In this document: positions 2,585 through 27,258 of the stretch, piece after piece
How the letters are laid out: each line of letters opens with the position of its first letter
Numbering within the stretch: position 1 is the stretch's first letter
Source: Ramlibacter sp.
GTDB taxonomy: Bacteria > Pseudomonadota > Gammaproteobacteria > Burkholderiales > Burkholderiaceae_C
Direction: 5' to 3'
NCBI GenBank assembly: GCA_029237735.1
Contig: JAQZBU010000102.1
Span: 1-36,467 of the forward strand
Length of the DNA: 36,467 nt
The notes under the pieces: generated by a model
Databases searched by the model: none
Seen by the model: only the letters and a program-made list of their open reading frames with translations
What the model was told of the DNA's origin: nothing
Made by a program: the position numbers and the translations under genes

Positions 2585-3575
2585 TCAGGCGCCCAGGGTC
2601 TTGGTCATCTCGACCAGCTGACCGAGCTTGGCCTTGGCCGCGCCGGATTCGATCGCCGCGCGAGCCCGGTCGATGCCTGTTTTGATTGAATCAGTGACAT
2701 TGGCCGCATACAAGGCAGCGCCGGCATTGAGGATTACGATGTCGCGGGCAGCGCCGGGCTGATTGTCCAGCACGCCGATCAGCATCTCGCGCGATTGCTC
2801 GGGCGTCTCCACTTTGAGGGCTCGGTTGCTGGCCATTGCCAGGCCGAAGTCTTCGGGGTGGATTTCATATTCGGAGATCTCGCCGTTCTTCAGCTCACCC
2901 ACCATGGTCGCGGCACCCAGGCTCACCTCATCCATGCCATCACGGCCGTACACGACGATTGCATGCTCGGCGCCCAGACGCTGCAAGGCCCGCACCTGTA
3001 TGCCGACCAGATCGGGGTGAAAAACGCCCATCAGGATGTTGGGCGCGCTCGCCGGGTTGGTCAAAGGCCCCAGGATGTTGAAAATGGTACGAACGCCGGT
3101 GGTTCGGCGCAAACATGAAGCCGATGCCGACTTCCTCGATGCACTTCGCGATCGCCTCGGGCGACAGGTTGATATTGGCGCCCAGGCTTTCCAGCACGTC
3201 GGCGCTGCCGCTCTTGCTCGAGACGCTCCGCCCGCCATGCTTGCTGACCTTCGCGCCGGCAGCGGCCGCAACGAACATCGAGCAAGTGGAGATGTTGAAC
3301 GTGTGCGAGCCGTCGCCGCCTGTTCCGACGATGTCGACGAGGTGCGTCTTGTCGGGCACGTTGACCTTGGTGGAGAACTCGCGCATGACCTGTGCGGCCG
3401 CCGTGATCTCCCCAATGGTTTCCTTCTTCACGCGCAGGCCGGTGATCAGCGCCGCCATCATCACGGGCGACAGTTCGCCGCTCATGATCATGCGCACGAC
3501 CCGGAGCATCTCGTCGTGGAAGATTTCGCGGTGTTCAATGGTGCGCTGCAGCGCTTCCTGGGGGGTAATGGGCAT
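2585..3575 (-). pseudogene. trpD: Anthranilate phosphoribosyltransferase with an internal frameshifting deletion
   Basis: TrpD transfers phosphoribosyl to anthranilate. The start at 3575 (MPITPQEAL) has a strong GAGGAGG ribosome site 5 nt upstream. The first frame reads normally through [14 protein letters not shown] and the KHGGRS and SGSADVLE motifs to FMFAPNH, ending at residue 159 (base 3099). The next intact sequence, [15 protein letters not shown], begins at 3097 in another frame and runs to the stop at 2585. Seen: 159 codons, one extra base, then 170 codons, about 329 residues in all. The family has about 343. The missing stretch is the HPAMKNVAPVR-type segment, about 14 residues (about 41 bp), which holds the anthranilate-contacting Arg. 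As written the frame is lost after residue 159 and the enzyme would be inactive. Either a real mutation or a consensus error. Confidence 0.93.
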
Positions 3576-3586
3576 TTCGGCCTCCT

Positions 3587-4249
3587 CTATCGAGCGGTGG
3601 GATTGTCGGACAAAGCCAGTTTCAGGCCGAAGCCGATGAACATGCAGGCGGCCGCGCGGTCCAGCCAATGCATGCCTTTTTGCAAGGCGCCGCGGCGCGC
3701 CATCCAGGCGGCAGCCAGGGCCCACCCGGAATTCACCGGAATGGCGTTCAGGTTGAAGATGATCCCGAGCAGCACGAACGCGAGCGCCTTGTTGTCCGTG
3801 TCCGGCGAGATGAACTGCGGCACGAACGCGAGGAAGAAGATCGCGACCTTCGGGTTGAGTATGTTGGTGAGAAAACCGCCGGTGAACACCGATCGCAGGG
3901 TGGGCACCTTTGCCCACCTTTCCCCGCTCGCCGTGGACGCAGGTGCCCACCCTACGGGTTGCGCCTTCGCCAGCAGGATCCTGGCGCCAATCCACAGCAG
4001 GTAAGCCGCGCCGACGTATTTGAGCAGCGTGAAGGCCGTGGCTGAAGTAGCCAGCAGCGCGCTCACCCCGAGCGCCGCCGCGAAGATATGCACGAAGCAG
4101 CCGGCCGTGATGCCCAGGCCCGCAACGATGCCCGTCTTCGCGCCCGAGCGCAGCGAATTGGTGACGATGTAGAGAACGTCGGGGCCGGGCGTGAGGTTCA
4201 ACAGCCAGCCTGCGGCGATGAACAACAACAGATGTTGGGCATCCGGCAC
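3587..4249 (-). CDS. RhtB/LysE-family amino-acid exporter
   Basis: This is an inner-membrane exporter of the LysE/RhtB family, typically for threonine, homoserine or related amino acids. The family N-terminus [14 protein letters not shown] and the second-half motif [21 protein letters not shown] are both present, with about six hydrophobic segments in 220 residues. A GTG start at 4249 ([10 protein letters not shown]) is chosen because it follows the ltaE stop directly with a GGAAAG ribosome site. An ATG at 4309 would overlap ltaE by 56 bp and add a non-hydrophobic tail. The cytoplasmic loop (about residues 99-118) is encoded by a palindromic element (3897-3953). Lying next to threonine aldolase suggests a role in threonine or glycine balance; the substrate is not proven. 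Confidence 0.9.
3897..3953. repeat. REP-like palindromic element inside the exporter gene
   Basis: AGGGTGGGCACCT at 3897-3909 is a perfect 13-bp inverted repeat of 3941-3953. A nested hairpin GGTGGGCA/TGCCCACC lies at 3899-3906 and 3911-3918. The arms are the GTGGGCA type reported for dispersed palindromes in related bacteria (from memory). The element is read through in frame and encodes a hydrophilic, Pro/Gly-containing loop of about 19 residues. It is the only copy in this window. Confidence 0.6.
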
Positions 4250-4253
4250 GGCG

Positions 4254-25795: not shown

Positions 25796-26068
25796 TCAGG
25801 CGGGGCCTTGCGCGCCCAGGACGCGCAGGTCGTACTCGCGCAACATCACCGGCTCGCGCGAGCCTTGCGCGAGCCGCCTGCGCACCGCGGCTTCGATGTC
25901 GGCCGCGTTCGCCAGGAAGGTTTCGACCGGGTCCTCGCCCTGGGCGGTGGGCCGGTAACGATGATGCAAGGCCTCGCGGCCCACGCTGGCGCCGAGCAGC
26001 TTGCCGTCCACCGCCACCCAGAACCGGACGGTGCCGGAACTCTCGTGAAGAAAGGGGGCGTCGGACAT
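25796..26068 (-). CDS. Small conserved protein, DUF1488-like
   Basis: This 90-residue soluble protein ([12 protein letters not shown]) has the pattern [21 protein letters not shown], then an acidic helical part and MLREYD near the end. The pattern resembles DUF1488 proteins, which have no known function. It ends at 25796, 57 bp before the proposed GTG start of the glucan synthase, so the two are probably co-transcribed. There is no ribosome site before the ATG. This fits the suspicion that sequence is missing just upstream, at the junction with the lipoprotein gene. Confidence 0.6.
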
Positions 26069-26370
26069 GGGCAGGTGTCACCGGTTTTGCCGCGCTGGCC
26101 GGTGGCACCGGTATCGCCGGTGCTGCCGGTATTGCCCATGGCGCCCGCGCTGCCGGTGCTGCCGGTGCTGCCGGTGCTGCCGGTGCTGCCAGTCGCGCCG
26201 GTGTCGCCCGCTGTGCCCGTCGCGCCGGTGGCGCCGGTGGCACCCGCGGGGCCGGGGACGGCGACGGGCACCGGAACGTTGACGACGGTCGGCGCCGGGG
26301 TAACTTCACGCTGGCAGGCGGCGAGGGAGACGGCCATGGCGACCATGGAAATGACGATTGCGAGTTTCAT
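25846..26370 (-). CDS. Collagen-like lipoprotein, 3' end probably fused by a deletion
   Basis: The start at 26370 gives a lipoprotein signal (MAVSLAAC, lipobox Cys19). A Val/Pro linker ([14 protein letters not shown]) is followed by about 19 Gly-X-Y triplets ([33 protein letters not shown]), a collagen-like rod on the cell surface or in the periplasm. After KTGDT (about base 26080) the frame continues into CPCPTPP and then reads the DUF1488-like gene out of frame, down to 25846. That tail is Arg/Pro/Ser-rich and does not look like real protein. The true gene most likely ended shortly after the Gly-X-Y region, and its stop has been lost. Confidence 0.7.
26152..26187. repeat. Four perfect 9-bp tandem repeats in the collagen-like gene
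   Basis: GCCGGTGCT is repeated four times without error. On the minus strand it encodes Gly-Ser-Thr triplets of the collagen-like rod. Copy number could change by slippage in steps of three residues without loss of frame. Confidence 0.85.
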
Positions 26371-26486
26371 TGGAAATCCAGTTGATTGTTTGAAAAAGAG
26401 GAACGCTCACCTGGACAGACATGTGGACACAGCGAGACCGAATGAAGATAGCGCTTCCGCGCCCGCTGGTCTGTTCGCTGGCGCGC
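26371..26486. other. Intergenic segment upstream of the collagen-like lipoprotein
   Basis: 115 bp between the lipoprotein start and the stop of the response regulator gene. It should carry the promoter of the lipoprotein/DUF1488/glucan synthase group, but I see no clear -10/-35 pair. Confidence 0.3.
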
Positions 26487-27258
26487 TTAGGGCGCCCCAT
26501 CATTACGTAAGCCGGGGACTACAAGCTCGCGCGCGATGATTTCCTGCCCGATGCCGCGGTAACCAAGGAAGCGGCAAGCCGGGCCGAACATTGGTTCGCC
26601 GCTCACCTGGTACTTCTGCACCGAGCCGTCGGGGTTGACGCGGCTGAAGACGAAGTCCAGGAACGGTTCGCGCGCGGCGATGGCGGCGCGCAGCACCGCA
26701 CGCTCGCTTTCGTTCCATCCGGTGAGCCGCGCCGTGTCTTCCTGCGCAGCGAGGGTGTCGTTCCAGAACCCCAGCATCTCGAGCACTGGACCCGACATCC
26801 GCGTGAAGTTGCCGCTCTCGTCTTGTTCCCAGTACCAGTCGCAGGCGAGCTCGGTCAGGCTGCGGTAGCGCTCCTCGCTCTCGCGCAGCTCTGCGGTTCG
26901 ATTTCGCACTTCCTTCGAAGGGCTTGCTGATGAAGTCCCGCGCGCCGGCCTTCAGCGCGCGCACCTTGTGCCCGGGCTCCGCCGTGATGACCAACACGGG
27001 CAGCCAGCCGTCGGGCGCATCGCCCTTGAGGTGCTTCATCACCTCGAAGCCGTCCATCCCGGGCATCTGCAGGTCGAGCAGGATCAGGTCGTAGTCGTGC
27101 TCGCGGTGCAACTCGCACACCTCGCGCGGGTCCATGGTCGCGCAGACGCCTGTGTAACCCGCCTCGCCAAGCGCCTGCTCCAGCAGCGCCACATTGGCCG
27201 GCTGGTCGTCGACAATGAGGATGCGAGCGGCGAGGATCGCGGAACCATCGATCATCAT
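26487..27258 (-). pseudogene. Response regulator-PAS protein with a frameshifting deletion
   Basis: The receiver domain is clear: VDDQP at 16-20, phospho-acceptor Asp62 in LILLDLQMPGMDG and Lys112 in ISKPFE. The first frame ends usefully at Glu115 (base 26914). From 26912 another frame continues with EVRNRTAELRESEERY, a linker helix and a PAS domain (YRSLTELACDWYWEQ, FLGYRGIGQE), to the stop at 26487. In related proteins about 20 residues (the last receiver helix and linker, of the type VLLRVHNMLEVRLL) lie between. So about 60 bp are missing and the frame is lost. The start at 27258 (ATGATG) overlaps the kinase stop in ATGA. No output domain follows the PAS domain, which is also unusual. Confidence 0.85.

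What the first reader, a model, noticed from the sequence alone, without database searches (positions are those of the whole stretch)
3098..26914. At least five internal deletions in conserved genes within 24 kb
trpD (about 3098), trpE (about 6353), the glucan synthase (about 21461 and 20721) and the response regulator (about 26913) each jump from one conserved motif to a later one. The joints lack about 41, 159, 141, 135 and 60 bp (sizes estimated from remembered family lengths). Four of five break the frame. The flanking sequence is otherwise clean, with no other point-type decay, and no transposase or integrase is present. Clean, short, intragenic losses in unrelated genes look more like assembly or consensus collapse than pseudogene decay. 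If real, they would be a remarkable burst of microdeletions.
Basis: partly seen in the sequence, partly recalled or inferred. Interest (0 to 1): 0.75.

Follow-up and report, generated by a model that had tools for sequence, protein, structure and literature searches.

The report
Assembly joins missing short DNA pieces
Five short pieces are missing from conserved genes in this draft bacterial genome, and similar faults elsewhere in the same draft, of missing and of doubled pieces, suggest that fragments were glued end to end during assembly rather than that the living cell lost the DNA.

Summary
Against two collinear Ramlibacter relatives the window lacks 41 bp in trpD (joint at 3098), 162 bp in trpE (6354), 133 and 134 bp in a GH94-type glucan synthase (about 20720, 21461) and 87-89 bp after a response-regulator domain (about 26915). 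The trpE piece is present in 24 of 24 same-genus relatives searched. Four of five joints break the frame.

The fault is not local. In 1.15 Mb of the same draft a frame scan gave 24 candidates, 4 of them in the window. Relatives' DNA confirms losses in aceE (158-164 bp), rph (55), hrpA (25) and others. Ten clean losses sized on DNA are 25-164 bp and lack junction homology beyond chance. Two exact tandem duplications (53 and 29 bp) also break genes.

Losses plus unmerged overlaps point to fragments abutted with wrong spacing. Raw scan rates do not separate this draft from relatives (P 0.28); confirmed cases do, weakly (12 against 3, P 0.034). No reads were available.

The parts
2585..3575 (-). 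trpD (anthranilate phosphoribosyltransferase), broken; start codon chosen by eye
   Evidence: PF02885 and PF00591 pieces in two frames
3097..3098 (-). joint 1: 41 bp missing, frame broken
   Evidence: alignment to G004 and G007
6195..7580 (-). trpE (anthranilate synthase component I), internal loss, frame kept
   Evidence: PF04715 and PF00425; 24 of 24 same-genus relatives have the piece
6353..6354 (-). joint 2: 162 bp missing, frame kept
17601..26309 (-). cyclic beta-glucan synthase-like gene with GH94 domains, broken twice; outer limits from the open frames
   Evidence: PF10091, PF06165 (twice) and PF17167 spread over three pieces
20719..20720 (-). joint 3: 133 bp missing, frame broken
   Evidence: vs G004
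21460..21461 (-). joint 4: 134 bp missing, frame broken
26526..27258 (-). response regulator receiver domain followed by a sensor-like stretch (no Pfam match), broken
   Evidence: PF00072 on 26914-27258; frame break at 26901
26914..26915 (-). joint 5: 87-89 bp missing, frame broken

Best explanation
The five losses are faults of the draft assembly, not of the organism. Neighbouring pieces (contigs or mates of read pairs) were joined end to end without the sequence, or the run of N, that belongs between them. Where the true spacing was positive, sequence is missing (25-164 bp in the ten clean cases sized). Where the ends overlapped and were not merged, an exact tandem copy remains. Shown here: the losses, their occurrence on other contigs of the draft, the lack of junction homology in relatives' sequence, no recognisable copy of the missing window segments elsewhere in the draft, and the exact duplications. 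Inferred: the abutting step itself, and which program or clean-up made it.
For: (1) The losses are exact and agree between relatives (trpE in 24 of 24). (2) The same kind of loss lies on other contigs: aceE 158-164 bp vs four relatives, hrpA 25 bp vs four, rph 55 bp vs four, a glutamate-synthase-like gene 91 and 50 bp vs G007. By profile gap: OHCU decarboxylase about 36 aa, a YeiH-type transporter about 36 and 33 aa, a Do-type protease about 53 aa. (3) Homology between the two ends, measured in relatives' sequence, averages 0.6 nt over ten joints against 0.74 at random places; one joint has 4 nt, nine have 0-1. (4) The missing window segments, sought with G004's versions, gave 42 chance-like hits in the draft, best E 0.03 (40 of 75 candidates scored; the 41-bp piece is short for such a search). 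(5) The ten clean losses are at most 164 bp, although the frame scan sets no size limit. (6) Frame-breaking exact tandem duplications of 53 bp (L184:9362) and 29 bp (L258:6570) occur in the draft. Of tandem matches of at least 20 bp the draft had 6 in 1.157 Mb and the relatives 1 in 0.962 Mb. (7) Outside the window 7 of 17 retained joints (12 confirmed, 5 undecided) fall in contigs under 15 kb, which hold 17% of the sampled bases; binomial P 0.015, a split chosen afterwards.
Against: Raw scan counts outside the window do not differ significantly from relatives: 20 in 1.117 Mb against 11 in 0.962 Mb, P 0.28. A difference appears only after I judged each candidate (12 confirmed against 3, one-sided P 0.034). 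Some control stretches overlap one another, and L202-L219 were fetched as relatives' counterparts of places in the draft. G007 and G003 also show a few real-looking breaks. A stretch of C14 aligns over 11.2 kb to G004 without such a gap, so the faults are not everywhere. The draft shows no run of N apart from one contig that is wholly N, but most relatives sampled show none either; only G004 does (181, 222, 259 bases), and those could be masking. No reads were available, so no joint was tested directly.
Confidence: 0.93

Rival explanations
1. Real, very recent burst of blunt small deletions in this lineage, for instance by end joining with Ku and LigD, before any point decay could build up.
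For: The joints have no homology, as blunt end joining would give; no further frame breaks were found in the window.
Against: Housekeeping genes such as aceE, rph and hrpA are hit as well. The ten clean losses stay under 165 bp. Exact tandem duplications break genes too. All these events would have to be fixed in the population that the consensus represents (inference). Ku and LigD were not searched for.
Confidence: 0.03
2. Replication slippage or repeat collapse between short direct repeats, in the cell or in the assembler's k-mer graph.
For: One joint (about 20720) has 4 nt of homology.
Against: Nine of ten joints have 0-1 nt, no more than random places (measured in relatives' sequence, not in the lost sequence itself).
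Confidence: 0.02
3. Ordinary variation between species: the relatives carry insertions.
For: A 99-bp difference in hrpA is seen against G004 but not against G019, so private insertions exist in this genus.
Against: The missing trpE stretch is present in 24 of 24 relatives, the other four losses agree between the two relatives aligned, and four of five break the frame.
Confidence: 0.01
4. Consensus of a mixed population in which one strain has the deletions.
For: The bin has 8.09% estimated contamination.
Against: No recognisable copy of the missing window segments was found elsewhere in the draft.
Confidence: 0.01

Closest known systems
Scaffold gaps (runs of N between contigs joined by read pairs)
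   Same: Short, placed inside genes without regard to function (recalled as typical); relative G004 has N runs of 181, 222 and 259 bases, one of them inside a sigma-factor-like gene.
   Different: Here no N marks the place; the ends abut. Whether G004's runs are gaps or masking is not known.
Local misassembly in metagenome-assembled genomes (subject of tools such as metaMIC, PMC9661791; only the search listing with the start of its abstract was seen)
   Same: Faults within contigs that reads or relatives reveal.
   Different: As I recall, the usual cases are joins between genomes or across repeats; here neighbours in true order have wrong spacing.
Pseudogene decay
   Same: Frames broken in conserved genes.
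   Different: No further frame breaks in the window, housekeeping genes hit elsewhere, losses of a narrow size range.

Membership tests
assembly joining artefact | losses in unrelated, also housekeeping, genes on several contigs of the draft | tested here: met
   aceE, hrpA, rph, trpD, trpE and others; gene names outside the window partly recalled
assembly joining artefact | errors of both signs (lost spacing and unmerged overlap) | tested here: met
   25-164 bp losses; exact 53- and 29-bp frame-breaking duplications
assembly joining artefact | more frequent than in relatives' assemblies | tested here: inconclusive
   raw 20 in 1.117 Mb vs 11 in 0.962 Mb, P 0.28; confirmed 12 vs 3, one-sided P 0.034
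assembly joining artefact | no continuous reads support the joint | not testable with these tools
   no reads held
slippage or repeat-collapse deletion | direct repeats at the two ends | tested here: not met
   mean 0.6 nt vs 0.74 at random, ten joints, in relatives' sequence
pseudogene decay | further frameshifts or stops in the same genes | tested here: not met
   no frame break beyond the joints passed the cut-off in the window; pieces on either side open and matching their families, except one RR-side piece without a match

The most novel reading that the evidence does not exclude
A free-living betaproteobacterial lineage has just gone through a genome-wide burst of blunt deletions of about 25-165 bp and small tandem duplications that hit housekeeping genes.
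Probability: 0.03. Interest if true: 0.8.

Novelty: not a real feature. Interest (0 to 1): 0.12.

Why it matters
Gene-absence, pseudogene and frameshift counts from this draft cannot be trusted. A split gene counts twice: both pieces of trpD pass the PF00591 cut-off, so part of the 8.09% contamination estimate may be split markers (inference). A check for frame breaks plus exact tandem duplications may flag such drafts without reads, but raw frame-break counts alone did not separate this draft from its relatives.

Tried and rejected
Hairpins or high GC as the cause of the gaps: mean fold z -0.64 and mean GC z +0.45 over ten missing segments. Three segments (glucan synthase 133 bp, glutamate-synthase-like 91 and 50 bp) have fold z of -1.5 to -2.8, so a partial role is possible but not general.

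A first version of the codon model was trained partly on antisense frames and gave wrong strands; it was corrected before use. A second candidate loss in hrpA (L163 about 10140) proved to be extra sequence in G004 only, as far as G019 tells. The 263-bp difference at 29911 vs G004 lies between genes; G007 also has extra sequence about there, of other sizes; it is not counted. The 183-bp difference at 26173 vs G004 falls at G004's 181-base run of N.

Of the 20 scan candidates outside the window I dropped three by eye before the contig-length count: L185:10559 (low-complexity gene), L242:17491 and L259:9879 (ordinary gene neighbours). Five stay undecided: L159:5251, L180:3277, L160:1927 (no match in the G007 stretch), L256:8049 and L258:2489. 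Of 11 control candidates three were taken as real (G007 L051 twice, G003 L237), five as false or a run of N (G004 L227, G004 L230, G007 L202, G020 L046, G012 L047), three are undecided (G007 L232, G003 L236 twice). Some control stretches overlap (L041 with L042, L051 with L052, L043 with L044, L049 with L050), so the 0.962 Mb counts some bases twice.

An earlier tandem scan with units from 14 bp on part of the data gave 4 in the draft (726 kb) and 2 in relatives (498 kb). Paper searches (listings with starts of abstracts, no paper opened) listed nothing that I recognised as a report on this draft.

Full report
What the window is. The window is contig C134 of a draft genome of 5.75 Mb in 253 contigs, estimated 94.06% complete with 8.09% contamination. 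A genome of the same genus, G014, carries trpE on a contig of 413,642 bases, the length of NZ_LMQL01000008.1, Ramlibacter sp. Leaf400. The genus is therefore taken as Ramlibacter; this is an inference from contig length and gene content.

Check of the observation. Contigs G004:C24 and G007:C10 are collinear with most of the window. Aligned to both, the window lacks 41 bp at 3098, 162 bp at 6354, 133 bp at 20715-20720, 134 bp at 21461 and 87-89 bp at 26915-26921. A repeat with narrower stretches agreed except for the third joint against G007, where the alignment slid. By eye from the table, no other loss of 25 bp or more inside a well aligned gene sits at the same place in both comparisons; stretches that align poorly (about 5900-6200, 9000-14500, 17400-17750, 26035-26550) cannot be judged. 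The trpE piece is present in 24 of 24 same-genus relatives searched, as 157-164 bases between the two matched parts (read by eye). A seven-state codon model finds four frame breaks inside genes in the window, at four of the five joints; the cut-off was set on this window. The trpE loss keeps the frame.

Is it local? I scanned 73 stretches of the draft (1.154 Mb, window included) and 0.962 Mb of 14 relatives in the same way. The draft gave 24 candidates, 4 in the window and 20 elsewhere; the relatives gave 11. Outside the window the raw rates do not differ significantly (P 0.28). The window is denser than the rest of the draft (Poisson P 0.0045), but it was chosen because of its joints. One stretch of contig C14 aligns over 11.2 kb to G004 as a single piece, so the faults are scattered.

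Candidates checked one by one. Relatives' DNA shows clean losses in aceE (158-164 bp, four relatives), hrpA (25 bp, four relatives), rph (55 bp, four relatives) and a glutamate-synthase-like gene (91 and 50 bp, G007 only). In metX the net loss is 14 bp against G019 and G007, in a variable stretch, and larger against G006 and G004; this one is weaker. Profile gaps show losses in an OHCU decarboxylase (positions 55 to 92 of 155), a YeiH-type protein (70 to 107 and 178 to 212 of 304), a Do-type protease (323 to 377 of 434), an acyl-CoA dehydrogenase (middle domain begins at 32 of 97), and weakly a radical SAM protein (45 to 52 of 166). That makes 12 confirmed outside the window against 3 of 11 in the relatives (one-sided P 0.034). 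I judged these after seeing the candidates, with more relatives' DNA to hand for the draft than for the controls. The names aceE, hrpA, rph, metX and glutamate-synthase-like are recalled from the protein sequences, not from a call.

Signs of the mechanism. The ten clean losses sized on DNA (five in the window, five outside; metX left out) run from 25 to 164 bp. Homology between the two ends, measured in relatives' sequence, averages 0.6 nt against 0.74 nt at random places. The missing segments are not consistently GC-rich or strongly folding. G004's versions of the five window segments gave only 42 short, chance-like hits in the draft, best E 0.03. The reverse error also occurs: L184:9362 holds an exact 53-bp tandem copy inside a gene that reads like a response regulator, and L258:6570 an exact 29-bp tandem copy at the start of a gene that reads like an HNH endonuclease (both names recalled from the translations); both break the frame. 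Four further exact tandem matches in the draft (24-27-bp units) are not counted: one (L243) is an in-frame repeat protein, and three in L244 were not examined. The relatives had one, a 27-bp unit in G003.

Why joining faults. Losses and unmerged overlaps together are what end-to-end joining with wrong spacing gives. The cap near 165 bp would suit the gap within a read pair or between neighbouring contigs (inference). Joints are denser in contigs under 15 kb (7 of 17 retained joints outside the window, in 187 of 1,117 kb; P 0.015, split chosen afterwards), as low coverage would give. The 74 stretches of the draft held no run of N except one contig (L066) that is wholly N. Most relatives sampled held none either; only G004 had runs, of 181, 222 and 259 bases. 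So the lack of N is compatible with stripped gaps but does not prove them. Whether Ns were stripped, a gap closer failed, or mates were concatenated cannot be told from the sequence.

Verdict. The name 'collapse' does not fit, because the joints show no shared sequence. There is no new biology here unless reads show otherwise.

Noticed in passing
window 3894-3956: An imperfect inverted repeat (arms 24 nt, 83%, 15-nt loop) inside a LysE-like gene (name recalled), like a small REP-type element; copy number in the genome not tested.
   Followed up: partly
window 1-489: The contig ends inside what reads as tuf (EF-Tu; name recalled from the motif); as recalled, this gene is often duplicated in related bacteria, which would fit a short-read contig break.
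   Followed up: no
L051 7470-8162 (G007): The glucan synthase of relative G007 is out of frame for about 650 bp, with about 82 bp more at one end and about 94 bp less at the other than the window; no tandem repeat explains it.
   Followed up: partly
L237 8204 (G003): A MASE4 sensor in another fragmented draft lacks about 14 aa with a frame break, so similar faults may occur in other drafts of this genus.
   Followed up: no
L001 and L002 (trpD in G000, window 2636-3347): Both pieces of the split trpD pass the PF00591 cut-off, so split genes may inflate the contamination estimate of this draft.
   Followed up: no
L244 9522, 17576, 17790: Three short tandem arrays with 24-25-bp units in one stretch of the draft, not examined.
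   Followed up: no
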